Source of the DNA: Chryseobacterium tructae
Lineage (GTDB): Bacteria; Bacteroidota; Bacteroidia; Flavobacteriales; Weeksellaceae
NCBI RefSeq assembly: GCF_030409875.1
Contig: NZ_JAUFQR010000001.1
Coordinates: 806,001 to 870,000, forward strand
Length of the DNA stretch: 64,000 nt
Reading direction: 5' to 3'
Position 1 is the first letter of the stretch. Each line of letters opens with the position of its first letter. Below the pieces are notes generated by a model. The model worked only from the letters and a program-made list of their open reading frames with translations, searched no databases and had not been told where the DNA came from. Of this stretch, positions 50,465 through 63,357 are shown piece by piece. The position numbers and the translations under genes are program-made.

Positions 50465-51733
50465 TTAAAAATTAATATCCCAGATTCCTGCTCTGCGTTC
50501 AAGTTCGATCAAAGCTGTTGCATTATCTGCAAGAGCCTGATAATAATCTTTTCTTACTCCATTGTAGGTTCTTTGAGCATTAAGGACTTCGAGAATGGAA
50601 CTTTCTCCCCTTTTGTAACTATAGGTAATGCCTTCCAATATGCTTTTTGCTTCCGTAAGCATTCCGTTATGAAATTGTTTTACCTGTTTTTGAGTGGCCA
50701 TATATTGTTGATAGGCTTGCATTACTTCGGCTTGTATTCCCTGTTCTATCTGATGATATTCAAGTTCTGCCTGAGAATGTGCCATTTCAGCTATTTTTAC
50801 GCCTGCATTTCTTCTGTTAGAAAATTTTAAAGGGATGCTAAGCCCTAGTTTTACTGCATTTACCGTTGGGGAAGGAGCAATTTCATTCGTTGCTTCAGTG
50901 TGGCGCTCTGCTCCGGCATTGATTCCAAGGTCTATTTTTCGGTTTGCTTTTTCAAGATTGATCTGCCTTTTGGCAACTTGTGTATTCTGTTTAGCTGCCA
51001 GTAGATCTGCCCTTGTATTTAATGCCTGAATCAGAAGATCATCAATATTAAAATCTCTGTTAAAGGCATTAAAATCTCCGGCGATCTCTCTATTTGTTAT
51101 TTTACCATCATTGAGAAATACAGCTAGCCCAGTCAATGCTTGTAGTTCTGCACTTTCAGCCTGGTATACCTCGTTGAGAAGAGAAGCCGCTTCCAGCTTA
51201 CTTTGTTTTGAAGTAACTAAAGAAATTGTTCCTAATCGATATCGGATACTGTCTGACTTGGCAAGCTGCAGGATGTTTTTATAAGAATCCTGTTGTACTT
51301 CTAGAATGGCTTTAGATTTTAAAGCATCTACATATCCTAAGCTAGCGTCAGCCCGTAGATTTCTGAAAAAATCCTGCAATTGAATTTTACTTAATTCTGA
51401 TTGATCTTTAGCCAGGTTTATTCTTGCTTTTCTTTTACCACCTAATTCTAATGTCCAACCCAAAGATGCTCCGTATACATATCCCATATTCTTTGCAACG
51501 CCATTGTTGGTGGTTTCCATCTCCAATTGCGGATCGGGAAACATACTTGCCGTTTGAATTGCAGCTTCAGCCATACCTATATTGTATTTTTGAGCGGCAT
51601 ATCCCAGATTTTTCTTTCCGACAAGACTCAGATATTCCTCAAAATTCAGAATTTCCTTTTCTTGTGCCTTTACCTTATTGGTTACGCTGAGTAATAAGGT
51701 CACTATTATGATAAAGTGAACTCTAATTTTCAT
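50465..51733 (-). CDS. TolC-family outer-membrane factor of the RND metal efflux pump
   Basis: A 422-residue outer-membrane channel, CzcC/CusC-like. Signal peptide MKIRVHFIIIVTLLLSVTNKVKAQ, then two outer-membrane-efflux repeats (LNFEEYLSLVGKKNLGYAAQKYNIGMAEAAIQTASMFPDPQLEME ... ALKSKAILEVQQDSYKNILQLAKS ... IEQGIQAEVMQAYQQYMATQKQVKQF ... RGESSILEVLNAQRTYNGVRKDYYQALADNATALIELERRAG) and C-terminal INF. It forms the exit duct of the pump with the adaptor and the RND protein. The start at 51733 overlaps the end of the RND gene by 11 bp; an alternative at 51748 overlaps more. Confidence 0.93.
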   Translation of the reverse strand: MKIRVHFIIIVTLLLSVTNKVKAQEKEILNFEEYLSLVGKKNLGYAAQKYNIGMAEAAIQTASMFPDPQLEMETTNNGVAKNMGYVYGASLGWTLELGGKRKARINLAKDQSELSKIQLQDFFRNLRADASLGYVDALKSKAILEVQQDSYKNILQLAKSDSIRYRLGTISLVTSKQSKLEAASLLNEVYQAESAELQALTGLAVFLNDGKITNREIAGDFNAFNRDFNIDDLLIQALNTRADLLAAKQNTQVAKRQINLEKANRKIDLGINAGAERHTEATNEIAPSPTVNAVKLGLSIPLKFSNRRNAGVKIAEMAHSQAELEYHQIEQGIQAEVMQAYQQYMATQKQVKQFHNGMLTEAKSILEGITYSYKRGESSILEVLNAQRTYNGVRKDYYQALADNATALIELERRAGIWDINF

Positions 51734-54700
51734 ATGTAAGTGCTTCATCTGATTCTAAATTTTGTTTTTCGTTACGACGTTCTGCCATAAAATAAATAGC
51801 AGGAAGAACGAAGAGTGTTAAAATAGTCGAGAACATTAAACCGTATACGATTACAGTTGCAAGAGGCCGCTGTACATCCGAGCCAATTCCGGTAGCTAAT
51901 GAAGCAGGAAACAGTCCGATTACCGCAACAGTTGCTGTCATTAATACTGGTCTAAAACGATCTTTAGCTCCTTTTGTTACGGCAAGTTTCAGCTCATATC
52001 CTTTTTTACGAAGGTCATTGATATGAGAAATCATAATCACTCCATTCTGAATGGCGACTCCAAAAAGGGCAATAAATCCTACAGCTGAAGATACGTTCAA
52101 AGACATTCCACGTATATTAAGGGCAAGCATACCTCCAAACAAAGCCAGCGGAACAATAGACATTAATACCAATGCTTGTTTGAAGTCTCCGAAAGCTCCA
52201 TATAATAGCAGGAACATAATAGCTAATGCCAGCGGAACAATGAATGCCAATCTGGAATAAGCCCTATTTTGGTTTTCAAACTGTCCACCCCATTTGATCT
52301 GGTACTTTTCATGATCATATTTGATGTCTTTTTCAATCTTGTCCTGAGCTTTTTTCAGGAAAGAAGAAAGGTCTGTTCCCCTTAAATTCAATTTTACGGT
52401 AAGATGTCTCTTATTCATTTCGCGGGTAATTGTACTTTCTCCGGTGCTTAATTTTACTTCTGCTACTTGAGATAAAGGGATTTTAGCTCCTGAAGCTGAG
52501 GTTAACATCAGGTTTCCTATTTTATCAGGAGTATCACGGCTGTCTTCAGTGTAACGACAAGAAATATCGTAGACTTTATTGCCGATAAAGATCTGCGAGA
52601 TTGCTTTTCCACCTAAAGCAACTTCAATAAGGTCGGCCACATCGGCTACATTCAATCCATATTGAGCGATTTTATCCCTGTCTGCAATGATTTGAAGCTG
52701 AGGCAGTGGAGGTTCCTGGTCAATGGCAAGGTCTGCAGAGCCCGGAACTTTATTTAAAGTAGACAACACATTTTCAGCAATTCTTCTGGTTTCTTTGAAA
52801 TCTTCTCCATATACCTTTACCACCAATTCACTGTGTGCTCCGGAAATTTTATCCATTACTCCGTCAATCATAGGTTGAGAGAAACCTACTGTAAACCCTG
52901 GCATTTCTTTGTAATCAGCAGCTAATTCTTTGATAAGATCAGCTTTCGTTTTCCCGGATGGCCATTCATCATAAGGCTTTATTCCCACAGAAACTTCAAA
53001 ATGAGAAGCCGTCCATGGATCAGTTCCGTCATCGTTACGGCCAGCCTGAACCATCATATAAGTGATTTCCGAATGTTTCAATGTCCTGGCGCGTAAGGTA
53101 TCACTCATTTCTTTTGCTTTGGCTAGAGAAATGCCTGGAGGTAACTGTACCTGCAGCCATATAGAACCTTCATCCAGTTCCGGAAGGAAGTCTTTTCCTA
53201 CAGTATAAGAAAGTACTCCGGCAGATAATAAAACGATAGTGACCGGGATCATTACTTTTTTAGGGGTTTGCATTATTTTTTCAATTCTTTTACCATAGGC
53301 TGTGCTTACTTTTTCAAGCCACTTGTTGTGATATATTTTTTGTGGTTTTCGATAGATCACATAAGCTAAACCTGGAATAAGGAGCAATGCTACAGCAAGA
53401 GCACCCAATAGAGCATATCCTACTGTAAATGCCATGGGAGTAAAGAGCTTTTTCTCTACTCTTTCGAAGGCAAATAATGGAAGATAAGCTGTAATAATGA
53501 TAATCGTAGAAAAGAAGATAGGTTTTGCCACTTCAATCACCCTTTGTGTAATTGTTTTTTCTTCTAATGGTTCTTCAGAATTTTCCTCTCTTTTTTTCAG
53601 AATTGTTTCCAGCATTACAATGGCTCCGTCTACAATAATTCCAAAATCAATAGCTCCCAATGAAAGAAGGTTAGCCGGAATATTGGTAAAATGCATTAAA
53701 ATAAATGCAAATAATAAAGAAAGCGGAATGGTGATAGCTACCAATAAAGCACCTCTCCAACTTCCCAGAAATACGATCAGGACAATAATAACAAGTACAA
53801 TTCCTTCAGTAAGCGTATGAGAAACTGTATGAAGCGTAGTACTTACAAGATCTGTTCTGTCAAGGAAAGGGTGAATTTTTACACCAGGAGGAAGGGTTTC
53901 ATTGTTTAGTTCGTCAATAGCTTGATGAACACCTTCCAATACCTGGGATGGGTTTTGCCCTCTCAATAATAAAACGATACCTTCTACACTTTCCGGATAG
54001 TTTCTCTTTCGGTCTGTATATCCCAGAATTCCTTTTCGTTCCAGGTTTCCGTATTTCAATGTTCCTACATCATTCAGGAATACCGGAACACCATTTTCTG
54101 TTTTTACTACAATTTTCCCAAGGTCATTTAGATCTTTCACAAGACCTATTCCTCGAATAACGTAGGCTAAGTTTCCACGAGGAAGCATGCTTCCCCCGGC
54201 GCTTACATTATTTTTTGAAATGGTTTCGGTGACTTCCGATAATGAAAGGCCATATTGTTCAAGCTTGTGAGGATCTAATTCTACTTGAAACTGAGTGGTA
54301 ATCCCACCAAAATTGGTCACATCTGCGATGCCGGAAACCTGCTTGATACGGGGAATGATTACAAATTTTTGTAAATCTGTAAGCTCCCGCAAACTGTGAT
54401 TATTACTTTCAATAATATAACGGTACACTTCGCCAACAGGAGAAGTAAGAGGATCTAGTCCAGGCTGTGCTCCATAAGGAAGAGTAACATCCGTAAGTCT
54501 TTCCTGAATACGCTGTCTTGCCCAATAATCATCTATACCATCATCAAAAACCATGGTAATCATAGAGAGTCCGAAGGTACTTTTGCTTCGCATAACATGC
54601 ATTCCCGGGAGACCATTAAGAGCTCTTTCCAAAGGAATGGTAATTTGTTGTTCTACTTCTTCAGCAGCCAATCCGGGAACCTGGGTAACCACCTGCGAAG

Positions 54701-54833
54701 TTACATCAGCAATATCAGGATAAGCTTCTACGGATAATTTGGTCCAGGAATAATAGCCAAAGAACCCCAATAAAAGGAAGAGTGCCAACATCAGCCACCT
54801 CTTCTGTATAGAGATTGTCAAAAGTTTTTTCAT
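51723..54833 (-). CDS. CusA/CzcA-family heavy-metal efflux RND transporter
   Basis: A 1036-residue inner-membrane proton antiporter of the heavy-metal efflux (HME) group. The layout is complete: 12 membrane helices and two large periplasmic loops. The transmembrane-4 motif AIDFGIIVDGAIVMLET, with its two aspartates, is the DFG..DGA type seen in divalent-cation pumps such as CzcA rather than the silver/copper CusA type. Co, Zn, Cd or Ni are therefore better guesses than Cu, though this is inference. Further landmarks are RIQERLTDV near 100 and SVEGIVLLLRGQNPSQVL. It lies between the adaptor gene (72 bp upstream) and the TolC gene (overlapping). Confidence 0.95.
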   Translation of the reverse strand: MKKLLTISIQKRWLMLALFLLLGFFGYYSWTKLSVEAYPDIADVTSQVVTQVPGLAAEEVEQQITIPLERALNGLPGMHVMRSKSTFGLSMITMVFDDGIDDYWARQRIQERLTDVTLPYGAQPGLDPLTSPVGEVYRYIIESNNHSLRELTDLQKFVIIPRIKQVSGIADVTNFGGITTQFQVELDPHKLEQYGLSLSEVTETISKNNVSAGGSMLPRGNLAYVIRGIGLVKDLNDLGKIVVKTENGVPVFLNDVGTLKYGNLERKGILGYTDRKRNYPESVEGIVLLLRGQNPSQVLEGVHQAIDELNNETLPPGVKIHPFLDRTDLVSTTLHTVSHTLTEGIVLVIIVLIVFLGSWRGALLVAITIPLSLLFAFILMHFTNIPANLLSLGAIDFGIIVDGAIVMLETILKKREENSEEPLEEKTITQRVIEVAKPIFFSTIIIITAYLPLFAFERVEKKLFTPMAFTVGYALLGALAVALLLIPGLAYVIYRKPQKIYHNKWLEKVSTAYGKRIEKIMQTPKKVMIPVTIVLLSAGVLSYTVGKDFLPELDEGSIWLQVQLPPGISLAKAKEMSDTLRARTLKHSEITYMMVQAGRNDDGTDPWTASHFEVSVGIKPYDEWPSGKTKADLIKELAADYKEMPGFTVGFSQPMIDGVMDKISGAHSELVVKVYGEDFKETRRIAENVLSTLNKVPGSADLAIDQEPPLPQLQIIADRDKIAQYGLNVADVADLIEVALGGKAISQIFIGNKVYDISCRYTEDSRDTPDKIGNLMLTSASGAKIPLSQVAEVKLSTGESTITREMNKRHLTVKLNLRGTDLSSFLKKAQDKIEKDIKYDHEKYQIKWGGQFENQNRAYSRLAFIVPLALAIMFLLLYGAFGDFKQALVLMSIVPLALFGGMLALNIRGMSLNVSSAVGFIALFGVAIQNGVIMISHINDLRKKGYELKLAVTKGAKDRFRPVLMTATVAVIGLFPASLATGIGSDVQRPLATVIVYGLMFSTILTLFVLPAIYFMAERRNEKQNLESDEALTYEN

Positions 54834-54849
54834 GTTCTTAATAGATATT

Positions 54850-54906
54850 GTGTACAGTACGTATAAGGATATGTATTGTACTTTTTTACATCAGTTCATT
54901 GTACAC
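54850..54906. repeat. Nested inverted repeats between adaptor and RND genes
   Basis: GTGTACA at 54850 pairs with TGTACAC at 54900, and AGTAC at 54856 with GTACT at 54878. The 72-bp spacer could fold into a stem in the operon mRNA. Purpose unknown. Confidence 0.4.
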
Positions 54907-56009
54907 TATTTCGCATCCAGCATATAAATTCCGCCTTCGGTCATAATGGTATCACCTACTTTTAATCCGGAAGTAATTCTTACCATTTTCTGATCCGTTT
55001 CTCCGGTGGTTACCGAACGTTTGGCAAATTGATTCTTACCCGTTTTTATCCACACATATTGAGAACTGTCTTGTTGCATTAATGCGCTGATTGGAATCAT
55101 AATGGTTTTTTCAGGAGTAGTAGCAAAATTAACCGTGGCATACATGCCGGGTTTTAATTTCCTATCCGGATTATCACATTCAATAAGGACTTTTATGCTT
55201 CGGGTGTTTTCATCTACCACTTCATTGATGTGGTACACTTTCCCGGTAATATTTCTGTCGGGATAAGCGCTTACTTTTACAGAAACATGGTCTCCGATAT
55301 TGACAAAACGAATGTCTTTTTCCTTTACATCCCCTGAAATCCATACTTTGGATAATTCTGCAATGATGATGACAGGATCAGCATCACTTTTAAGAAATTG
55401 ACCGTTGACAATTTTATTGGAAATAATTTCGCCATTAATTGGGGCTCTTACAATAAGAGGACTCCCGATACCTCCGCCTTTACTGTTATAAACCTTCAAT
55501 GCAGAAGAAGCATTAGACAATGATGTTTTTTTATTTTTAAAATCTGTTTCTGCCTCGTCAAGTTCTTTCTGGATACCGACTCCGTGTTTTACCAGATCTT
55601 GTTGACGTTTGTAATTTTTCTCCGCAAGCTGTACATCGTTCAATGCATCTGTGTAATCTTTCTGAACAGAAAAATAATCAGAAGAAAGTATTTCAAAAAG
55701 CGGACTGTTTGCCGAAACATTTTGTCCAAGTCGAATGAAAGACTTTGTAATTCTTCCTGAGAATGGACTGGCAATTTCTGCATAATGATTGGGAATGGCC
55801 TGAATTGTTCCGGCAGAAACTACCCCGTCACTATGTTCTTGTTCAGAGACTATTTCTGTTTTTATTTTTTTTAATACCGGATTGTTTTCAGGGACGATTA
55901 CATTCTCCCCCTTTACCAGGAGATCCTGATCCTGAGAATCTTCACTTTTGGGATTTTTACAAGAGGTAATAAATGTCAAAAGTACTATTGTGAATACTGA
56001 TTTTCTCAT
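54906..56009 (-). CDS. RND efflux periplasmic adaptor (CzcB/CusB-like) lipoprotein
   Basis: A 367-residue membrane-fusion protein. Lipobox LTFITSC (cysteine 17), then a barrel-sandwich domain split by a helical hairpin (YAEIASPFSGRITKSFIRLGQNVSANSPLFEILS ... DALNDVQLAEKNYKRQQDLVKHGVGIQKELDEAETDFKNK ... IVRAPINGEIISNKIVNGQFLK), a beta-barrel domain (VWISGDVKEKDIRFV) and a C-terminal membrane-proximal domain. It links RND pump and TolC channel. No histidine-rich metal-chaperone tail is present. It is the first gene of the three-gene pump operon and carries the TTAGA repeat promoter upstream. Confidence 0.94.
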   Translation of the reverse strand: MRKSVFTIVLLTFITSCKNPKSEDSQDQDLLVKGENVIVPENNPVLKKIKTEIVSEQEHSDGVVSAGTIQAIPNHYAEIASPFSGRITKSFIRLGQNVSANSPLFEILSSDYFSVQKDYTDALNDVQLAEKNYKRQQDLVKHGVGIQKELDEAETDFKNKKTSLSNASSALKVYNSKGGGIGSPLIVRAPINGEIISNKIVNGQFLKSDADPVIIIAELSKVWISGDVKEKDIRFVNIGDHVSVKVSAYPDRNITGKVYHINEVVDENTRSIKVLIECDNPDRKLKPGMYATVNFATTPEKTIMIPISALMQQDSSQYVWIKTGKNQFAKRSVTTGETDQKMVRITSGLKVGDTIMTEGGIYMLDAK

Positions 56010-56109
56010 ATAAGATGTTTATAACCACTAATTTAATTCTAATTTATTTTTATTTCAATATATTGTGATATTTGTTTAGAATACCTGTAATACTTATTTT
56101 TTGCCGTTG

Positions 56110-56184
56110 CAAAAGTATTTCCATCCTTTCTGATAGCTGGTTAGAGAACCTTTAGAATGCTATTAGAAAACTATTAGAAAAGAT
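56110..56184 (-). promoter_or_regulatory. Pump operon promoter with four 11-bp-spaced TTAGA repeats
   Basis: TTAGA begins at 56141, 56152, 56163 and 56174, exactly 11 bp apart, so all four lie on one face of the helix. Reading with the gene (minus strand) the repeats come first, then 24 bp on (TTAGA start to box end) the -7 box TACTTTTG at 56110-56117, then the start codon at 56009. The flanking GTTGCAAAAGTATT matches the mgtC promoter (GTTGCAAAGGTATT). No -33 TTG is evident, as expected if an activator replaces it. Binding by the OmpR-family regulator at 62555 is inference. Confidence 0.8.
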
Positions 56185-56199
56185 GAAATCTCTAAGGGA

Positions 56200-58872
56200 T
56201 TATAGCCATTGCCCGAATTTTTTAATAAACCATTGTTTCACAAATTGGGTAAGAATACAATACCCGGTAAGAATTCCTATCAGGTAAGGAAAATAAGTGA
56301 AAGGTAAAGGCTGTATTTTCAGATATCCTGCCCATGGAGTGAAAGGAATCATAATTCCGATCAACATGATTAAGCTTGTTAATGCTACCACTGGTGCAGC
56401 AGCCCAGCTTTGGATAAATGGAATCTTTTTGGTTCTGATAATATGAACAATCAGGGTTTGAGACAACAGTCCTTCCACAAACCATCCGGTCTGAAATAAA
56501 CTCTGTTGCTCTGGTGCGTTGGCTTTGAAAATAAAGTACATCACAGCAAATGTCACATAATCAAAAATGGAACTCAACGGGCCTATATATAGCATGAATT
56601 TTTTAATACTATCGGCTTCCCATTTTTTGGGTTGCTCCAGAAAATCTTTATCCATCGTATCCCAAGGAATTGAAGATTGTGAAATATCATACAACAGATT
56701 CTGAGTCAAAATTTGTAGAGGCAACATTGGTAGAAAGGGAAGCAATGCACTGGCACCAATCATACTGAACATATTTCCAAAGTTGCTGCTAGCTGTCATT
56801 TTTATATATTTAATAATATTACCAAATGTTCTGCGGCCATAAATAACTCCGCTTCTCAGCACCATTAAGTCTTTTTCGAGCAGAATGATATCTGCACTTT
56901 CTTTGGCAATGTCTGCTCCGGTATCTACAGAAATTCCGACATCTGCTTCTTTAATGGCAGCTGCATCATTGATTCCGTCTCCCATAAATCCAACAGTATG
57001 ACCTTTGGATCTTAATATTTTTACAATGCGTTGTTTTTGTAATGGGCTTACCTTGGCAAAAACGGAATATAAATCCATATCTTTGCTGAGTTCTTCATCG
57101 CTCATATCCTCCAGTTGATCACCAAGCATGATTGTATTGATGGGAATGCCTACATCATTACATATTTTTTTAGCAACAATATCATTGTCTCCGGTAATCA
57201 CTTTTACTTCAATACCTAATTTATGCAAGGCTTTGATACTGGGTTCTGCAGAAGGTTTAGCAGGATCAAGAAATCCAATAAAACCGGTAAGGATAAGGTG
57301 ATTTTCATCTGCAACAGAATAATTGAGTGGATGATCTCCTTCAAATTCTCTGATGGCAACAAGCAAAACACGAAGACCTTCTGCATTGAGTTTTTCAGAC
57401 ATTCTGATGATTTTTTCTTTCATAAGATCATCTAATGGGATAATATTATCATTCTCAATATGAAGACTGTGATCATCGCCTGGATCTAAAGCATATTTAC
57501 ATAAAGAAAGCATTTCTTCTACGGCACCTTTTGAAATCATCAGGTGTTTTCCTTTTGAGGTATTCAGAATAACAGACATCCTTCTTCTTTCAAAGTCAAA
57601 GGGAATTTCATCAACTTTCAGATAGAGTTCATCAGCTTTCATGAGATTATGAACTTCTGCATGATCCAGAACAGCCTGATCCAATAGGTTTTTTAGTCCG
57701 GTTTGATGAAAACTATTGAGGTAAGCCCATTTTAAGACTTCATCATCTTCAAGGCCGCGCACGTTGAGGTGAGTTTCCAGAACAATTTTATCAAGAGTAA
57801 GGGTTCCGGTTTTATCGGTGCAGAGAATATCCATCGCTCCGATATTCTGGATGGCATTCAATCTTTTAACGATTACTTTTTTCTTACTCATGTTAACCGC
57901 ACCTTTGGCTAGGTTGGCGGTAACAATCATGGGCAACATTTCAGGAGTAAGCCCTACTGCAACAGCAATAGCGAATAAGAGAGCCTGCATCCAGTCTCCT
58001 TTTACCAATCCGTTGATAAGAAAAATAATGGGAGTCATAACCAGCATGAATCGGATCAATAAAAAACTTACTTTGTTGACTCCGATATCAAATGCTGTTT
58101 CAGGTCTTTTAGAAGCAAGGCTTCTGCTGATGCTTCCGAAATAAGTAAAAATACTGGTGTTAACAACCACAACGGTAGCTGATCCACTCACTACATTGGT
58201 TCCCATAAAACAGATGTTTTGAAGAGTCAGTGGATTTTTATTTTTTGCATCCCGAATTGTAAAAGCATTCTTTTCAACAGGCAGGGCTTCTCCTGTAAGA
58301 ATAGATTCACTGATGAAAAGGTCTTTACTTTTCAAAATTCTGCAGTCAGCAGGAACCATATCTCCGGCAGAAAGGATCACCATATCTCCGGGAACTATTT
58401 CAGTGATTTCTATTTCTTCATTTTCTTTATATTTTCTTTTGGTAAGACAGCTTGTTTTTACCATTTTTTTCAATGCTTCTGCTGCCTTATTGCTTTTAAA
58501 CTCCTGGATAAATCTTAAAATAGTACTGAACAGAAGCATTATTGAAATAATAATACTTGTACTAAGATCTTTTTCTCCTGCAGGAACAAGAATTACATCG
58601 ATAAATAAAGAGATAACAGCAATACAAACGAGTATATAATTAAATGGATTAAAGAAAGAATGAGCAAACTGTTTCAGCCACGAGGGGGCTTTTTGGGTGG
58701 CAATTTCATTTTTACCGTAAACTTTCAAACGGTCTTTTACTGTATTTTCGCTAAGACCTTCTTCTGAAGTTTCCAGTATAGCGTAAACCATTTTTTCGTT
58801 CTCTGAAGCAGCTTCTTTCAATTTAACAAGAGCTGCTGAGTTGAGATTTTTGTTGGAAGATTTTTTTAACAT
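56200..58872 (-). CDS. mgtA: Magnesium-importing P-type ATPase
   Basis: An 890-residue P3B-type ATPase of the MgtA/MgtB family. Landmarks: actuator motif TGEALPVEK at 193-201, transmembrane-4 motif VGLTPEMLPMIV near 307, phosphorylation site DKTGTLT with Asp353, ATP-binding segment, hinge MGDGINDAAAIKEADVGISVDTGADIAKESADIILLEKDL, and C-terminal helices. The end YIGPLSSIFDYVTFAVMYFIF and LPFLPMLPLQILTQNLLYDISQ are typical MgtA. It imports Mg2+ into the cytoplasm. It follows the MgtC-like gene by 11 bp and shares its promoter at 59691. Confidence 0.95.
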   Translation of the reverse strand: MLKKSSNKNLNSAALVKLKEAASENEKMVYAILETSEEGLSENTVKDRLKVYGKNEIATQKAPSWLKQFAHSFFNPFNYILVCIAVISLFIDVILVPAGEKDLSTSIIISIMLLFSTILRFIQEFKSNKAAEALKKMVKTSCLTKRKYKENEEIEITEIVPGDMVILSAGDMVPADCRILKSKDLFISESILTGEALPVEKNAFTIRDAKNKNPLTLQNICFMGTNVVSGSATVVVVNTSIFTYFGSISRSLASKRPETAFDIGVNKVSFLLIRFMLVMTPIIFLINGLVKGDWMQALLFAIAVAVGLTPEMLPMIVTANLAKGAVNMSKKKVIVKRLNAIQNIGAMDILCTDKTGTLTLDKIVLETHLNVRGLEDDEVLKWAYLNSFHQTGLKNLLDQAVLDHAEVHNLMKADELYLKVDEIPFDFERRRMSVILNTSKGKHLMISKGAVEEMLSLCKYALDPGDDHSLHIENDNIIPLDDLMKEKIIRMSEKLNAEGLRVLLVAIREFEGDHPLNYSVADENHLILTGFIGFLDPAKPSAEPSIKALHKLGIEVKVITGDNDIVAKKICNDVGIPINTIMLGDQLEDMSDEELSKDMDLYSVFAKVSPLQKQRIVKILRSKGHTVGFMGDGINDAAAIKEADVGISVDTGADIAKESADIILLEKDLMVLRSGVIYGRRTFGNIIKYIKMTASSNFGNMFSMIGASALLPFLPMLPLQILTQNLLYDISQSSIPWDTMDKDFLEQPKKWEADSIKKFMLYIGPLSSIFDYVTFAVMYFIFKANAPEQQSLFQTGWFVEGLLSQTLIVHIIRTKKIPFIQSWAAAPVVALTSLIMLIGIMIPFTPWAGYLKIQPLPFTYFPYLIGILTGYCILTQFVKQWFIKKFGQWL

Positions 58873-58883
58873 GGCTTTAATTA

Positions 58884-59582
58884 TTATAAATCATTTTCAG
58901 TTCCTATAATTTCCCAGCTTACCTTGATGACTTTATCTTCAATGGTAAGCCTGCTTGCTGTTTTTTCCATGAAACTGTCCTGTGGAATGGAAGCATGAAC
59001 TTCTGCCGTAATGATGGCATTTTCAGGAACACCATTATCATCGCTGGTAAGAGATTTCAACAGGACTTTATCATTTCCGCTCAATGACTGCATGAGCTGT
59101 ACCCGGATATGATTTTCTACTTCACTTTTACATTTGATACTGAGTAAATATTCGGTGTAATGATTTCTGTTGTTGATATTATTGCCTAGTTTTACCCCTA
59201 ATGGACGGAGAATAAGATGAGTAAGGATAATAAAACCACTGGTAATAGCGGCTTCGAGGGGAAGCCCTAAAGCGGAAAGAGCTCCTACAGATGCAGAGCA
59301 CCAGATGGTGGCAGCAGTATTGAGACCTCTTACAGTAAGACCGTCTTTCATAATGACACCACCGCCCAGAAAGCCGATACCACTAACGATATATGAAGCA
59401 ATTCTGCCCGTGGCATCACCTCCGATCCGGATGGAAAGAAGAACAAATGCTGCGGAGCCAAGACATACTAGAGTATTGGTTCGAAGACCGGCACTTTTTT
59501 GACGCCATTGTCTTTCAAAACCTATGCTGGCACCCAATGCGAATGCCGTGAAGAGACGAAGAGTAAATTCTAACGTATTCAT
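58884..59582 (-). CDS. MgtC/SapB family membrane protein
   Basis: A 232-residue protein. The N-terminal membrane domain is MgtC-like: FTLRLFTAFALGASIGFERQWRQKSAGLRTNTLVCLGSAAFVLLS, IASYIVSGIGFLGGGVIMKDGLTVRGLNTAATIWCSASVGALSALG. The C-terminal ACT-like cytoplasmic domain starts about residue 145. In Salmonella MgtC inhibits the F-type ATP synthase and supports growth in low Mg2+; whether this holds here is unknown. The start MNTLEFTLRLF at 59582 fits the family; 37 further in-frame residues upstream do not. It precedes mgtA by 11 bp, the same pairing as in the Salmonella mgtCB operon. Confidence 0.92.
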   Translation of the reverse strand: MNTLEFTLRLFTAFALGASIGFERQWRQKSAGLRTNTLVCLGSAAFVLLSIRIGGDATGRIASYIVSGIGFLGGGVIMKDGLTVRGLNTAATIWCSASVGALSALGLPLEAAITSGFIILTHLILRPLGVKLGNNINNRNHYTEYLLSIKCKSEVENHIRVQLMQSLSGNDKVLLKSLTSDDNGVPENAIITAEVHASIPQDSFMEKTASRLTIEDKVIKVSWEIIGTENDL

Positions 59583-59690
59583 AACTTTTCTGTTTTTATG
59601 GCACTCAACCGTATACAGAAAAGTATATTGCTGAATGTTAGTTGTTGTAATAATGGGAGGAATCAGTATCCATAGTGATTTTCTTTGTTG

Positions 59691-59765
59691 CAAAGGTATT
59701 GTGACTGATGAAGAAAAGCCGTTAGAAAGGCTTTAGAAAGTTATTAGAAAACTATTAGAGAACTT
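59691..59765 (-). promoter_or_regulatory. mgtC-mgtA promoter with four 11-bp-spaced TTAGA repeats
   Basis: TTAGA begins at 59722, 59733, 59744 and 59755, exactly 11 bp apart. The -7 box TACCTTTG is at 59691-59698, again 24 bp from the nearest repeat and in the same orientation as in the pump operon promoter. The start codon is at 59582, giving a leader of about 100 nt. Confidence 0.8.
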
Positions 59766-59970
59766 GCAGTGAAATTTCTGAAATAAGAATTACCCATCAG
59801 ATGTTATTATTAATTGCTTCTATTTCAGAGAGAATGGGGGTGATTAAGGCTGCACTTTTATATAAGCCTACGAAAAATGGGCTACTAAGCAGAAGATTTT
59901 AATCAAATTTGGAGAACAGAGATTAACAGAATACCAATTTTTAGATTCTTATTGAAACAGATCTGCCAAT

Positions 59971-60006
59971 GGTTACAGATGAACAATTTACTTCTCATCT
60001 GTAACC
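59971..60006. promoter_or_regulatory. 12-bp inverted repeat upstream of the EamA promoter
   Basis: GGTTACAGATGA at 59971 and TCATCTGTAACC at 59995 pair perfectly around a 12-base loop. There is no T-run directly after it, and it sits 23 bp upstream of the -7 box at 60029, so a regulator site is more likely than a terminator. Confidence 0.5.
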
Positions 60007-60028
60007 CTCTTTTAAGGTGAAATTTCAA

Positions 60029-60036
60029 TACATTTG
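60029..60036 (+). promoter_or_regulatory. Candidate -7 element for the EamA gene
   Basis: TACATTTG matches TAnnTTTG exactly. If used it gives a leader of about 110 nt that contains the hairpin at 60101. Confidence 0.5.
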
Positions 60037-60100
60037 CTGTAAATCTCTTTTTATTATGGATCCCAGCAGTTTATAATTTATAGACAAGTGCTTATTTTAT

Positions 60101-60131
60101 CCCTAAAATTCCATGTTTTAGGGCTGTTTTT
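60101..60131 (+). terminator. Terminator-like hairpin in the leader of the EamA gene (possible attenuator)
   Basis: An 8-bp perfect stem (CCCTAAAA with TTTTAGGG), 7-base loop, then CTGTTTTTTA. It lies between the -7 box and the start codon at 60153, where it would stop transcription unless an alternative fold or factor intervenes. Confidence 0.55.
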
Positions 60132-60152
60132 TATGAATTATAAATTAAAAAA

Positions 60153-61004
60153 ATGAAAAAATTAAATACCGCGATACCTGCAACGCTTTTAGCTATTATC
60201 TGTGTGCAAGGTGGAGCATCTATTGCCAAACAGCTTTTTCCGGCTATCGGAGCCATTGGAACTGTCACTTTAAGAATTGTACTTTCAGCTATTTTGCTGA
60301 CCTTAATAAATCGACCAAAATTTTCCCAATTTAATGCACAAAAATGGAAATATTGTGCGATGTACGGGGTAGGATTGGCTTGCATGAACCTTATTTTTTA
60401 TATGGCTATTCAAAGGATTCCTCTTGGGTTGGCTGTTACTGTAGAATTTGCAGGACCTTTATTTCTTGCATTGGCATTATCCCGTAAAGTCCTGGATGTG
60501 GTTTGGGCATTATTAGCTTGTGTAGGAATATTACTTATTGTTCCCTGGCATAGTGATCATATAGATTTATTAGGGCTTGGATTAGCATTTCTGGCAGGGA
60601 TATTCTGGGCTCTTTATATTGTAATGGGTGGAAAAGTTTCTAAAATAATGGACGGTAAAGATGCCGTGACCACGGGAATGATATTTGCCAGTTTGGTGAT
60701 TATTCCTTTTACAATATGGGATGGTGCAGTTTTCAATCTTACACCTACCATCTTTGCAAAAGGGCTAGGAGTAGCTATTCTGTCGAGTGCTTTACCATTT
60801 TCCCTGGAAATGCTGGCTTTAAAAAAACTTCCCGCAAAAACATTCAGTATCTTGATGAGTTTGGAACCAGCATTTGCTGCCCTTTCAGGATTGCTATTCC
60901 TTGCTGAGGAACTTACGTTTCTTCAATGGATTTCTATTAGTTGTGTAATTGCTGCTAGTATTGGAACTACCGTTTTCAATAAAACGGCCACGGCTCATAA
61001 CTAA
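60153..61004 (+). CDS. EamA family transporter (RhtA-like)
   Basis: A 283-residue inner-membrane exporter of the drug/metabolite transporter superfamily with ten predicted helices in two EamA repeats. Landmarks: AIGAIGTVTLRIVLSAILLTLINRP, YGVGLACMNLIFYMAIQRIPLGLAVTVEFAGPLFLAL, ALYIVMGGKVSK, and KKLPAKTFSILMSLEPAFAALSGLLFLAEELTFLQW. The wording is close to RhtA, the threonine/homoserine exporter, but the substrate here is not proven. It is preceded by an unusual leader with an inverted repeat and terminator-like hairpin. It points toward the convergent histidine kinase gene. Confidence 0.92.
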   Translation: MKKLNTAIPATLLAIICVQGGASIAKQLFPAIGAIGTVTLRIVLSAILLTLINRPKFSQFNAQKWKYCAMYGVGLACMNLIFYMAIQRIPLGLAVTVEFAGPLFLALALSRKVLDVVWALLACVGILLIVPWHSDHIDLLGLGLAFLAGIFWALYIVMGGKVSKIMDGKDAVTTGMIFASLVIIPFTIWDGAVFNLTPTIFAKGLGVAILSSALPFSLEMLALKKLPAKTFSILMSLEPAFAALSGLLFLAEELTFLQWISISCVIAASIGTTVFNKTATAHN

Positions 61005-61160: not shown

Positions 61161-62528
61161 TTAAGCTGTCTCAATATCAAATACCACCATAAAAATAGTT
61201 GTATTATTTTCTGAGGTAACTTTAACTGTTGACTGATGAAGATGAATGATTTTTTCAGTAAGGAAAAGTCCTATTCCGTGCCCTTTTTCTTTTCTGGAGT
61301 TTTCGCTTCTGTAAAAAGGTTCAAAAATGTGAACTAAATCTTCTGCAGAAATGGTGATCCCAGTATTGGTAAAACTGACATAAAGTTTTTCGGTATCTGC
61401 TTTAACGTCTATAGAACATACATGTTCGGGTGAATATTTACAAGCATTATCAATAAGATTATTAAAGGCAACCTGCAACAGATATTCATTTCCCTGTGTT
61501 ATAAGCTGATGTTCTTCTACGGTATCATCAATATTCAGGGAAACTTTATAAGCTGGATTTTCTTTTATAATCTTAGTATATGATTCCAGAAGAACTTCAT
61601 CAATTCGTATTTCTGAGAAGCTGATTTCGTTAGGATCATAACTTGCCTTAGCGAGATCCATTAAGCTGTTGGATAGTTTAACCATATTATGAGCATCCTC
61701 TAAAGCACATTGAATAGTCGACTGATATTCTTCCTTAGTCAGTTCTTTTTCAGAAGCTAATTCCAATTCAGTGATAATTGCGGATAATGGGGTACGAAGT
61801 TCATGTGAGATATTGGAAACAAAATATTTTTGCGAATCAAAAGAATTCTCAAGACGTTCCAGCATTCCATTAAAATTCTGAGCAAGTTCATTAAGCTCAT
61901 CTTTTTCTCCGGTGGTTTTAAGGCGTAGCTGCAATTTTCCGGCAGTAATTTTTTTGATCTGGCTGACCATTTCACTCAGAGGACTCAAAGTTTTTTTGGA
62001 AAGGAATATCCCGGCCAGATAAATGAATAGTAATATACTGATGAAAGAAGCAATACTGATTGTGAGAAGGTGAGTAAGGTATTCATATCCATATTTGTCA
62101 TAGGAAGCAGCGGTAACAGCATAAGTATTTCCATTATGATGATACACCATCCCAACAACCTGTAAATTTTCCAGAAAGAAGCTTATTTTCTTTTTCTCAA
62201 ATATCTGAGTAAGCATTTCCGGTGTTTCTTTTACATAATCTACTTTAGCATCATCATGATAAACAAGTTGATCTTTTGAATCATAGATCGCCACCTGAAC
62301 TTCATTCAGAGTTCTGTTATTATTTCTATACAATTTATGCATTTCCTGCTCCGGTAATGAGCTTTGGAAAAAAAGATCGGCCTTGGCAATGGCCTCATTC
62401 TGTAACTCGCTGTAGAAAGACTTTTCCCTAGCTTCTTTGGAGGAATAATAAATGGTGATACTGTAAACGCTTAAAAGCATTGCAGTAATTAATGTAAAAA
62501 GCAGTGTAAGCCTTGTTCTTATTTTCAT
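61161..62528 (-). CDS. Sensor histidine kinase (HAMP-containing)
   Basis: A 455-residue membrane kinase. Two membrane helices (about 7-27 and 152-176) frame a periplasmic sensor of about 120 residues. A HAMP domain follows (SKKTLSPLSEMVSQIKKITAGKLQLRL), then the dimerisation helix with phospho-acceptor His242 in SNISHELRTPLSAI, and an ATPase domain with N (AFNNLIDNACKYS), F and G boxes (FEPFYRSENSRKEKGHGIGLFLTEKI). The first G box is poor (ADTEKLYVSFTNTG). It lies 26 bp after the response regulator gene. Its place next to the metal pump and Mg genes suggests a metal or envelope signal, by inference. Confidence 0.94.
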   Translation of the reverse strand: MKIRTRLTLLFTLITAMLLSVYSITIYYSSKEAREKSFYSELQNEAIAKADLFFQSSLPEQEMHKLYRNNNRTLNEVQVAIYDSKDQLVYHDDAKVDYVKETPEMLTQIFEKKKISFFLENLQVVGMVYHHNGNTYAVTAASYDKYGYEYLTHLLTISIASFISILLFIYLAGIFLSKKTLSPLSEMVSQIKKITAGKLQLRLKTTGEKDELNELAQNFNGMLERLENSFDSQKYFVSNISHELRTPLSAIITELELASEKELTKEEYQSTIQCALEDAHNMVKLSNSLMDLAKASYDPNEISFSEIRIDEVLLESYTKIIKENPAYKVSLNIDDTVEEHQLITQGNEYLLQVAFNNLIDNACKYSPEHVCSIDVKADTEKLYVSFTNTGITISAEDLVHIFEPFYRSENSRKEKGHGIGLFLTEKIIHLHQSTVKVTSENNTTIFMVVFDIETA

Positions 62529-62554: not shown

Positions 62555-63256
62555 TTAAATATTTCCCGTTTCGTAGCCTTTTTTCAGAATAAAACCCATT
62601 CCGGCTTTAGTATGGATGAGCTTATTTTCAAAATCTCTGTCAATTTTTTTTCGCAGATAATTGATATATACATCAATAAAGTTGGTTCCGGTATCAAAAT
62701 GAGTTTCCCATACTTTTTCTGCAATATCACTTCTGGAAAGTACTTTTTCAGAATTTTCCATCATGAATTTGAGTAGGTTAAACTCTTTAGGAGTCAGCTT
62801 GATAGGAACCTGATCTCTGCTTACTGTCTTTTGCTCCAGATTCATTTCAATACCTTCATATTTAAGCACAAAAATTTTTTGTTGTCTTTGTTGTGAAAAA
62901 CGCTTCAACAGAACATTGATTCTTGCCACCAACTCACGCATTTCAAAAGGTTTGGTCATATAATCATCAGCTCCGGCATCAAACCCTTCCAATTTATCAT
63001 CTGTTGTTCCTAATGCTGTAAGCATGACCACGGGAAGATTAGGTTTCAAAGCTTTTATTTCATTACAAAATTCAAGACCGCTTTTTTTAGGGAGAACAAT
63101 ATCGGTGACTACCAGGTCATAATTTTTTTGCAATGCCAGTTTCAATCCTGTTGCTCCATCATATGCTGTGCTTACTTCAAATTCAGCTTCCTGAAGCCCT
63201 TTTGTAATAAGCTTAGAAAGTCTGTCATCGTCTTCTACTAATAAAATATGAGGCAT
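62555..63256 (-). CDS. OmpR-family response regulator
   Basis: A 233-residue regulator. The receiver domain has the acidic pair in LVEDDDRL, phospho-acceptor Asp52 in VVTDIVLPKKSG, Thr in MLTALGTTDDKLEGFDAGADDYMTKPF and the conserved Lys. The C-terminal winged helix (LTPKEFNLLKFMMENSEKVLSRSDIAEKVWETHFDTGTNFIDVYINYLRKKID) is of the OmpR/PhoB class, which binds tandem direct repeats 10-11 bp apart. That is the geometry of the TTAGA sites at 56141 and 59722. The start MPHILLVEDDD at 63256 fits the family; a longer frame to 63307 does not. Confidence 0.95.
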   Translation of the reverse strand: MPHILLVEDDDRLSKLITKGLQEAEFEVSTAYDGATGLKLALQKNYDLVVTDIVLPKKSGLEFCNEIKALKPNLPVVMLTALGTTDDKLEGFDAGADDYMTKPFEMRELVARINVLLKRFSQQRQQKIFVLKYEGIEMNLEQKTVSRDQVPIKLTPKEFNLLKFMMENSEKVLSRSDIAEKVWETHFDTGTNFIDVYINYLRKKIDRDFENKLIHTKAGMGFILKKGYETGNI

Positions 63257-63307
63257 AAGAATAGGTGAAGTGTTTTGTGGGTGTAAAGATGAGGTAATAT
63301 TCTTCAC

Positions 63308-63315
63308 AAATGTAA
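63308..63315 (-). promoter_or_regulatory. Candidate -7 element for the two-component operon
   Basis: TACATTTG on the minus strand, 52 bp upstream of the regulator start at 63256. No TTAGA repeat is present here, so autoregulation through those sites is not indicated. Confidence 0.45.
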
Positions 63316-63330
63316 TGAATTCTATTTTGT

Positions 63331-63338
63331 AATTTTGA
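63331..63338 (+). promoter_or_regulatory. Candidate -7 element for the YiiX-like gene
   Basis: TAATTTTG matches TAnnTTTG, 19 bp before the ATG at 63358. It is back to back with the minus-strand element at 63308, so the two promoters would overlap. Confidence 0.4.
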
Positions 63339-63357
63339 CGGATAGAGAATAATTAGA

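What the first reader, a model, noticed from the sequence alone, without database searches (positions are those of the whole stretch)
56110..59765. Two operons share a promoter with four TTAGA motifs exactly 11 bp apart and at an identical distance from the -7 box
Seen directly: TTAGA starts at 56141, 56152, 56163, 56174 upstream of the RND pump operon and at 59722, 59733, 59744, 59755 upstream of mgtC-mgtA. Both sets have the same orientation to the gene, and the nearest TTAGA starts 24 bp from the end of a TAnnTTTG -7 box (TACTTTTG, TACCTTTG) with matching flanks GTTGCAAARGTATT. Known: OmpR/PhoB-type regulators bind direct repeats at 10-11 bp spacing and act next to the core promoter. Inferred: the OmpR-family regulator encoded at 62555 activates both operons. 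I know of no described operator of this sequence in Flavobacteriia.
Basis: partly seen in the sequence, partly recalled or inferred. Interest (0 to 1): 0.85.

Follow-up and report, generated by a model that had tools for sequence, protein, structure and literature searches.

The report
Shared metal-stress switch plus leader peptide
Two neighbouring bacterial operons for magnesium uptake and metal efflux carry the same four-times-repeated control sequence, found in many related bacteria, and the first of them also begins with a tiny conserved peptide gene that resembles the magnesium-sensing leader peptides known from Salmonella and E. coli.

Summary
Four TTAGA (TCTAA on the gene strand) at 11-bp steps lie at 56141-56178 and 59722-59759, each 23 nt before a TAnnTTTG -7 box; they are the only perfect copies in the 5.63-Mb genome. 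It is a real operator: of 80 mgtC loci found by protein alone, 78 carry it and 76 of these have a -7-type box at exactly 23 nt. In the genus, the mgtC/pump site occurs in 68 of 72 genomes with the window's OmpR-type regulator (>=60% identity) and in 0 of 76 without, within 5.1 kb of that regulator in 67 of 68. A paralogous regulator has the same operator beside a porin-like gene. Acidic 2, acidic 4 and Pro 5 match MgtL of E. coli, a Mg2+-responsive ribosome-destabilizing leader. Operator: new member of a known kind; operator plus leader: new variant.

The parts
59722..59759 (-). Operator of the mgtC-mgtA operon: four TCTAA (gene strand) at 11-bp steps
   Evidence: at least 18 of 20 operator letters before mgtC in 78 of 80 loci
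59691..59698 (-). -7 box TACCTTTG of mgtC, 23 nt from the operator
   Evidence: xAnnTTTG at 23 nt in 76 of 78 loci
59638..59673 (-). Leader ORF MDTDSSHYYNN, 11 codons plus stop, starting 17 nt after the -7 box
   Evidence: M[D/E] ORF of 8-20 codons in 52 of 57 long-leader mgtC loci; 748 of 10912 control ORFs have D/E at position 2
59602..59637 (-). Hairpin P1 beginning directly after the leader-ORF stop
   Evidence: covariation score 0.225 against 0.159 shuffled, 0 of 500 shuffles reach it; segment from leader stop to mgtC ATG has z -3.11
59615..59624 (-). Anti-RBS ACTTTTCTGT, overlapping the apical part of P1
   Evidence: complementary to 59584-59593; two pairs with changes on both sides
59584..59593 (-). 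ACAGAAAAGT just upstream of the mgtC start (probable ribosome-binding region)
58884..59582 (-). mgtC (232 aa from ATG 59582)
   Evidence: Pfam MgtC and MgtC_SapB_C; start from comparison with relatives
56200..58872 (-). mgtA, magnesium-translocating P-type ATPase
   Evidence: TIGR01524, 1235 bits, cut-off 611
56141..56178 (-). Operator of the RND efflux operon: four TCTAA at 11-bp steps
56110..56117 (-). -7 box TACTTTTG of the RND operon, 23 nt from the operator
54906..56009 (-). cusB/czcB-like periplasmic adaptor
   Evidence: TIGR01730, 170.7 bits, cut-off 94.9
51723..54833 (-). cusA/czcA-like RND permease
   Evidence: TIGR00914, 944 bits, cut-off 701
50465..51748 (-). TolC-like outer-membrane factor
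   Evidence: Pfam OEP
61161..62528 (-). Sensor histidine kinase
   Evidence: HAMP, HisKA, HATPase_c; best NCBIfam TIGR01386, 216 bits, below its cut-off 292.6
62555..63256 (-). OmpR-type response regulator, 233 aa from ATG 63256 (GTG 63307 overlaps a TACATTTG box at 63307-63314)
   Evidence: Response_reg and Trans_reg_C; best NCBIfam TIGR01387, 217 bits, below its cut-off 279; start. My protein queries ran from residue 2

Best explanation
A cation-stress module that is widespread, though patchy, in Bacteroidota. Shown by sequence: an operator of four TCTAA direct repeats at 11 bp, 23 nt from the -7 box, stands before mgtC; in the window and eight other genomes of the genus sample there is a second one about 3.6 kb away, in the window before cusBA; a linked OmpR-type regulator co-occurs with it. 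Inferred: two dimers of the phosphorylated regulator bind the four repeats on one face of the DNA, just upstream of the -33 region, and recruit RNA polymerase to both operons, coupling MgtC/MgtA to RND cation efflux. Shown by sequence: the mgtC transcript opens with a short ORF beginning M[D/E], in the genus nearly always with Asp2, Asp4 and Pro5, then a hairpin and a segment complementary to the mgtC ribosome-binding region. Inferred: this is a second, intracellular gate like MgtL/MgtQ. When Mg2+ is ample the leader is translated to its stop, the ribosome covers the 5' arm of hairpin P1, and the anti-RBS pairs with the mgtC RBS (off); when Mg2+ is low, ribosomes drop off at the acidic/proline start, P1 forms and the RBS is free (on). 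The direction of this gate is the least certain step.
For: Operator: exact geometry twice; 85 of 148 genus genomes versus 3 with the reversed control; 32 of 33 examined loci with TAnnTTTG at exactly 23 nt; 78 of 80 mgtC loci found by protein alone have at least 18 of 20 operator letters and 76 of these 78 have xAnnTTTG at 23 nt. Regulator: mgtC/pump operator in 68 of 72 genomes with a >=60% regulator and 0 of 76 without, on the same contig 1.4-5.0 kb from it in 67 of 68 (the 68th, G056, is split over contigs); 3 of the remaining 4 have it with 3 mismatches. The paralogue with a near-identical recognition helix carries the same operator. Regulon coherence: strict phylum-scan sites lie before mgtC, mgtA, RND adaptors, outer-membrane factors and porins. 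Leader: 52 of 57 long-leader loci versus 6.9% of 10912 control ORFs; Asp2 in 48 of 48 distinct genus leaders with both Asp codons, Asp4 in 47, Pro5 in 42 with three Pro codons. RNA: P1 covariation 0 of 500 shuffles; anti-RBS/RBS duplex stronger for cognate than swapped partners, -10.3 versus -8.1 (sd 0.29, 0 of 2000) in the genus and 32 of 5000 permutations as low across 11 lineages; the consensus fold of the 30 non-window-type leaders contains the anti-RBS helix. Precedent: MgtL drops ribosomes at its EPDP motif (Glu2, Asp4) at low Mg2+ (PMC11282234, passages); MgtQ Asp2/Glu5 frees a sequestered mgtB RBS (PMC8092293, passages).
Against: No binding, expression or Mg2+ data. The genomes are related, so co-occurrence and permutation numbers overstate independence. 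In the strict phylum scan 377 of 395 genomes have no match and 4 have a reversed-control match. Of the 80 mgtC loci, 11 show no regulator hit in the fetched stretch. Support for the anti-RBS helix from shuffles is modest: covariation score reached by 38 of 500, cells paired by 69 of 500, pairs changed on both sides by 193 of 500; for P1 the count of pairs changed on both sides is reached by 119 of 500. The minimum-energy fold of the window leader contains P1 but not the anti-RBS helix, and 11 of 200 shuffles fold as well. In Pedobacter, Filimonas and Chitinophaga the hairpin itself covers the region before the mgtC start, so the sign of control may differ between lineages. 21 of 78 operator-bearing mgtC loci have a short leader without room for such an ORF, and 5 of 57 long leaders lack it; 8 of the 52 leader ORFs do not fit M[D/E]x[D/G][P/S]. 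The nucleotides ATGGA are constant, so part of the D/E signal could be a nucleotide constraint. The regulator's own promoter has no conserved four-repeat operator.
Confidence: 0.68

Rival explanations
1. The operator part alone is right: one OmpR-type regulator controls both operons, and the leader ORF is translated but serves only translational coupling or re-initiation for mgtC, without sensing Mg2+.
For: The hairpin starts right after the leader stop, so a terminating ribosome could open it; in Pedobacter, Filimonas and Chitinophaga the hairpin covers the region before the mgtC start; the leader is missing in 21 short-leader loci that keep the operator.
Against: Coupling does not explain why Asp2, Asp4 and Pro5 are kept in the genus while position 3 varies, nor the match to Glu2, Asp4, Pro5 of MgtL (passages).
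Confidence: 0.2
2. The operator is recognised by several OmpR-type regulators of the genome (or mainly by another one), and the gene at 62555 is only one of them.
For: A paralogue of about 50% identity has the same operator beside its own gene; three further regulators of this genome have related recognition helices (L147, L148, L149), one of them (L149) about 1.7 kb from the degenerate repeat array of L003. Eleven of 80 mgtC loci show no regulator in the fetched stretch, yet all 11 are among the 78 with the operator.
Against: Within the genus the mgtC/pump site tracks the 62555 orthologue: 0 of 76 genomes without it, and lies next to it in 67 of 68.
Confidence: 0.25
3. The repeats bind a repressor or another kind of protein rather than an OmpR-type activator.
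For: Position next to the core promoter is compatible with repression; activation is not shown.
Against: The last repeat ends 23 nt before the -7 box, which leaves the -7 region free and fits activator placement; 11-bp direct repeats with a linked OmpR-type regulator are usual for that family (established knowledge, recalled).
Confidence: 0.08
4. Chance or shared ancestry of promoter DNA without function.
For: The two window sites share some spacer letters.
Against: Spacers diverge while the TCTAA units, the 11-bp steps and the 23-nt gap stay fixed across genera; reversed control 3 of 148.
Confidence: 0.01

Closest known systems
PhoB/PmrA/PhoP-type direct-repeat operators of OmpR-family regulators (recalled)
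   Same: 11-bp direct repeats next to the core promoter, linked OmpR-type regulator and kinase
   Different: Four TCTAA units in a row and a fixed 23-nt gap to a Bacteroidota -7 box; unit sequence unlike the PhoB, PmrA and PhoP boxes (those recalled, not compared here)
Salmonella mgtCBRU operon under PhoP with leader ORFs mgtM, mgtP and intergenic mgtQ (PMC8092293, passages)
   Same: mgtC first in an operon with a P-type Mg2+ transporter, under an OmpR-type regulator, with short ORFs; MgtQ has Asp2, Pro4, Glu5 and acts through an RBS-covering stem-loop
   Different: Here the acidic ORF is in the 5' leader of mgtC itself, 17 nt after the -7 box; the pump operon shares the operator; different phylum; regulator nearest TIGR01387
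E. coli/Salmonella MgtL leader peptide of mgtA (PMC11282234 and PMC11552253, passages)
   Same: Short ORF with acidic residues at 2 and 4 and Pro at 5 (EPDP in MgtL; DxDP here in most genus leaders, DPDP in L054 and L055) ahead of a Mg2+ gene
   Different: MgtL acts through Rho-dependent termination; here an RBS-pairing structure is predicted; no homology between the leaders was tested or is claimed
PhoP of Riemerella anatipestifer (PMC9603813, abstract and passages)
   Same: OmpR-family regulator with genome-wide binding data in a relative (same family by recalled taxonomy)
   Different: Reported motif TTTAACA; TTCTAA and TTAGA do not occur in the held main text; figures not seen
Mycobacterial M-box with conserved small upstream ORF (PMC12810186, passages)
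   Same: Mg2+-related leader with an upstream ORF in an operon that includes mgtC
   Different: Riboswitch; no Rfam family matches this stretch of the window at E<=1

Membership tests
OmpR/PhoB-type direct-repeat operator | Tandem direct repeats at 10-11 bp | tested here: met
   Four units at 11 bp twice, 78 of 80 mgtC loci
OmpR/PhoB-type direct-repeat operator | Fixed placement next to the core promoter | tested here: met
   23 nt to the -7 box in 76 of 78 loci
OmpR/PhoB-type direct-repeat operator | OmpR-family regulator linked or co-occurring | tested here: met
   regulator hit in the fetched stretch of 69 of 80 mgtC loci
OmpR/PhoB-type direct-repeat operator | Binding by the phosphorylated regulator | not testable with these tools
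   needs footprint or gel shift
CusR/CzcR/CopR subfamily (TIGR01387) | Score above the curated cut-off | tested here: not met
   217.1 bits against 279.2: nearest model, not a member
PhoP (PhoPQ) system | Regulator recognised by an enterobacterial PhoP model | tested here: inconclusive
   no PhoP model among the 25 of 97 NCBIfam families shown
Ribosome-destabilizing leader ORF (MgtL/MgtQ kind) | Short ORF with acidic/proline codons within the first five positions | tested here: met
   52 of 57 long leaders have D/E at 2; 44 of these 52 fit M[D/E]x[D/G][P/S] and 30 fit M[D/E]xDP; codon table
Ribosome-destabilizing leader ORF (MgtL/MgtQ kind) | Downstream RNA with an RBS-pairing or alternative structure | tested here: inconclusive
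   P1 supported; anti-RBS helix supported by cognate pairing but only modestly by shuffles and absent from the window's minimum-energy fold
Ribosome-destabilizing leader ORF (MgtL/MgtQ kind) | Mg2+-dependent ribosome drop-off | not testable with these tools
   needs reporter and toeprint assays
Known Mg2+ riboswitches and other RNA families in Rfam | Match to an Rfam model | tested here: not met
   window 56000-60200, no match at E<=1 among 4227 families

The most novel reading that the evidence does not exclude
Bacteroidota evolved, independently of enterobacteria, a two-layer mgtC switch: an OmpR-type regulator with a four-repeat operator drives mgtC, mgtA and a cation RND pump together, and a leader peptide starting M[D/E]x[D/G]P makes mgtC output depend on cytoplasmic Mg2+ through premature ribosome dissociation.
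Probability: 0.42. Interest if true: 0.8.

Novelty: new variant of a known kind. Interest (0 to 1): 0.63.

Why it matters
It would give a precise, searchable operator for an OmpR-type regulator in many Bacteroidota and tie Mg2+ acquisition to cation efflux in one regulon. If the leader works as proposed, sensing of Mg2+ by ribosome destabilization is not an enterobacterial peculiarity but arose, or has survived, in a distant phylum, which would make the idea of a general ribosome-based Mg2+ sensor directly testable.

Tried and rejected
Autoregulation of the regulator gene by the same operator: only a two-unit match (63342-63357) lies before it in the window, and in 16 relatives examined the best four-unit score was 15 of 20; dropped. 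A known riboswitch: no Rfam match at E<=1 in window 56000-60200. A leader ORF before cusB in the window: no ATGGA within 80 nt after the -7 box; other starts were not examined. A third operator in the genome: G000:C3:125042 has degenerate repeats near a kinase and an outer-membrane-factor gene, but TAnnTTTG is at 33, not 23 nt from the fourth repeat; left as uncertain. Published descriptions: searches (open-access PubMed Central subset) gave no listing or passage, among what I saw, that describes this operator or a Bacteroidota mgtC leader peptide. Most listed papers were not opened; the one TTCTAA hit in a Flavobacterium paper is a CRISPR repeat (PMC5395568, passages). Subscription papers are mostly not held.


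Full report
What was checked. The four-fold TTAGA repeats are at the stated coordinates and both sets sit 23 nt from a TAnnTTTG box. They are the only perfect four-repeat arrays in the 5.63-Mb genome and the only two matches, within 3 mismatches, of the full pattern repeats + 23 nt + TAnnTTTG. On the gene strand the unit is TCTAA. The last unit ends 23 nt before the -7 box, which puts the four units just upstream of where the -33 element would be (position inferred from the usual Bacteroidota promoter layout, recalled).

Conservation within the genus. With up to one mismatch the four-repeat pattern occurs in 85 of 148 genomes, the reversed control in 3. Of 33 loci inspected (3 from the own genome, 30 fetched), 32 have TAnnTTTG at exactly 23 nt; the exception is a degenerate array in the own genome at 33 nt. 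The sites fall into three classes: before mgtC or cusB; between a paralogous regulator and a divergent 442-aa porin-like gene; and a degenerate array near an outer-membrane-factor gene. One more hit, in G140, is a plain 11-bp tandem repeat by its letters. In nine of the 148 genomes two mgtC/pump-type sites lie 3.58-3.66 kb apart, as in the window (positions). In several fetched loci mgtC is followed directly by cusB and one site is seen.

Conservation beyond the genus. A search with the MgtC protein alone, blind to promoters, kept the best 80 of 418 loci. 78 have at least 18 of 20 operator letters within 450 nt upstream and 76 of these 78 have xAnnTTTG at exactly 23 nt, 56 of them TAnnTTTG; within 60 nt the only other position is 12 nt, once. 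The two without an array are L095 and L115. The record titles include Chryseobacterium, Elizabethkingia, Empedobacter, Weeksella, Flavobacterium, Pedobacter, Sphingobacterium, Mucilaginibacter, Chitinophaga, Dyadobacter and Pseudarcicella. The spread is patchy: a strict pattern scan of 395 Bacteroidota genomes gave 18 genomes with a match, in 12 of 170 genera, and 4 with a reversed-control match. In the 21 fetched loci of that scan the first genes downstream include mgtC, mgtA, RND adaptors, outer-membrane factors and porins (the names of outer-membrane-factor, porin and receptor genes are partly my reading of the translations).

The regulator. The protein at 62555-63256 has receiver and OmpR-type DNA-binding domains. 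Its best NCBIfam model is the heavy-metal regulator TIGR01387, 217 bits, below the 279-bit cut-off, so it is a relative, not a member. An orthologue of at least 60% identity (one of them partial, G056) occurs in 72 of 148 genus genomes; the mgtC/pump operator is in 68 of these 72 and in 0 of the other 76. In 67 of the 68 the site is on the same contig, 1.4-5.0 kb from the regulator; in G056 the two are on different contigs. The four misses are G028, G058, G106 and G130; three of them have a site with 3 mismatches, G028 none. These genomes are related, so the Fisher value is not a fair probability, but the association is complete in one direction. Of the 80 named mgtC loci, 69 show a regulator hit in the fetched stretch and 11 do not. 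The paralogue of the porin class, about 50% identical overall, differs from the window regulator at two of 17 positions in the stretch DTGTNFIDVYINYLRKK (that this stretch holds the recognition helix is recalled). Hence operator and regulator subfamily go together, and cross-binding is possible.

The leader. Reading on from the mgtC -7 box, the transcript has an ATG 17 nt after the box and an 11-codon ORF, MDTDSSHYYNN, at 59673-59638. In the 80-locus set, 57 operator-bearing loci have at least 70 nt between box and mgtC; 52 of them have, as first ATG within 60 nt, an ORF of 8-20 codons with D or E second; 5 do not (L078, L085, L090, L091, L120); 21 loci have a shorter leader. 44 of the 52 fit M[D/E]x[D/G][P/S] and 30 fit M[D/E]xDP. 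Among 10912 short ATG ORFs of the same loci 6.9% have D or E second and 0.46% fit M[D/E]x[D/G][P/S] (the leaders themselves are among these ORFs). In 48 distinct genus leaders codon 2 is GAT or GAC in all, codon 4 is Asp in 47, codon 5 is Pro in 42 (CCT, CCC, CCG) and Ser in 6, while codon 3 is Thr, Ser, Ala or Pro. Other lineages have MEPDSAKSHLAH, METDSQFVEQ, MDADPYSLNGSHHS, MDTGPARITRYPI, MDKPPCDKPLFFNLPSSE, MDLPPPRKQKL and the like. In the genus scan, 61 of the 68 genomes with the mgtC/pump site show ATGGA 8-30 nt after the box at that site (the looser pattern also has many hits elsewhere and in its control).

The RNA. Directly after the leader stop a hairpin P1 begins. On 18 window-type leaders its 15 pairs form in 88% of cells, at most 52% when slid; the covariation score 0.225 is reached by 0 of 500 shuffles, though the number of pairs changed on both sides (3) is reached by 119. 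The apical part of P1 contains a stretch complementary to the bases just upstream of the mgtC ATG. This second helix forms in 94% of cells, at most 62% when slid, with two pairs changed on both sides, but 38 of 500 shuffles reach its covariation score and 193 its two pairs, because most of its pairs hardly vary. In the other 30 leaders the consensus fold contains this helix, and one pair goes from C-G to U-A in 9 sequences. Swapping partners weakens the duplex: cognate mean -10.3 against -8.1 kcal/mol, sd 0.29, lowest of 2000 permutations -9.4, in the genus; -8.9 against -7.1, 32 of 5000 permutations as low, over 11 lineages. Twelve of 16 leaders tested fold with z of -2 or lower between leader stop and mgtC ATG; L080, L093, L094 and L113 do not. 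Against the model: the minimum-energy fold of the window leader has P1 and not the anti-RBS helix, and in Pedobacter, Filimonas and Chitinophaga the hairpin itself covers the region before the mgtC start, so the direction of control could differ.

Mechanism. The regulator step is the usual one for the family: two dimers on four half-sites one helical turn apart, contacting RNA polymerase (recalled, inferred here). For the leader I propose the MgtL/MgtQ logic. In E. coli, ribosomes leave mgtL at its EPDP motif, Glu2 to Pro5, when Mg2+ is low (PMC11282234, passages); in Salmonella, MgtQ (Asp2, Pro4, Glu5) acts by freeing the mgtB RBS from a stem-loop (PMC8092293, passages). Here complete translation would put the terminating ribosome over the 5' arm of P1 and leave the anti-RBS free to block mgtC; early drop-off would let P1 form and free mgtC. 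The direction is inference.

Known or new. Direct-repeat operators of OmpR-type regulators are a known kind; this one is a new member. The combination with a ribosome-destabilizing-type leader in Bacteroidota is, as far as my searches of an open-access library go, undescribed. The one experimental motif for an OmpR-family regulator of a close relative that these searches turned up, PhoP of Riemerella anatipestifer, is TTTAACA (PMC9603813, passages), a different sequence.

Noticed in passing
L018, L020, L021, L024, L033, 1501-1538; also L134, L137, L142, L143: The same four-repeat operator with the 23-nt gap stands between a paralogous OmpR-type regulator/kinase pair and a divergent 442-aa porin-like gene.
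   Followed up: partly
L003, 1501-1538 (G000:C3:125020-125090): A degenerate run of about six TTAGA-like units at 11 bp beside an outer-membrane-factor gene and a kinase; TAnnTTTG is at 33 nt from the fourth unit.
   Followed up: partly
window 63256-63357: The regulator probably starts at ATG 63256; the listed GTG 63307 overlaps a TACATTTG box at 63307-63314. A two-unit TCTAATTATTCTCTAT at 63342-63357 is not conserved in the relatives examined.
   Followed up: yes
L131, about 1613: An ORF reading MDLPPLPGKQKL follows the operator ahead of a cusB-like gene instead of mgtC: a possible leader on a pump operon.
   Followed up: no
listing, e.g. G012:C23:49884-49945, G129:C43:133122-133183: A second recurring promoter-like sequence with a single TCTAA, TAATTTTG and ATGGA in 8 listed genomes, without the four repeats.
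   Followed up: no
L140 and L129: Operator also found before a TonB-receptor-like gene and an outer-membrane-protein-like gene in other Bacteroidota (my reading of the translations).
   Followed up: no
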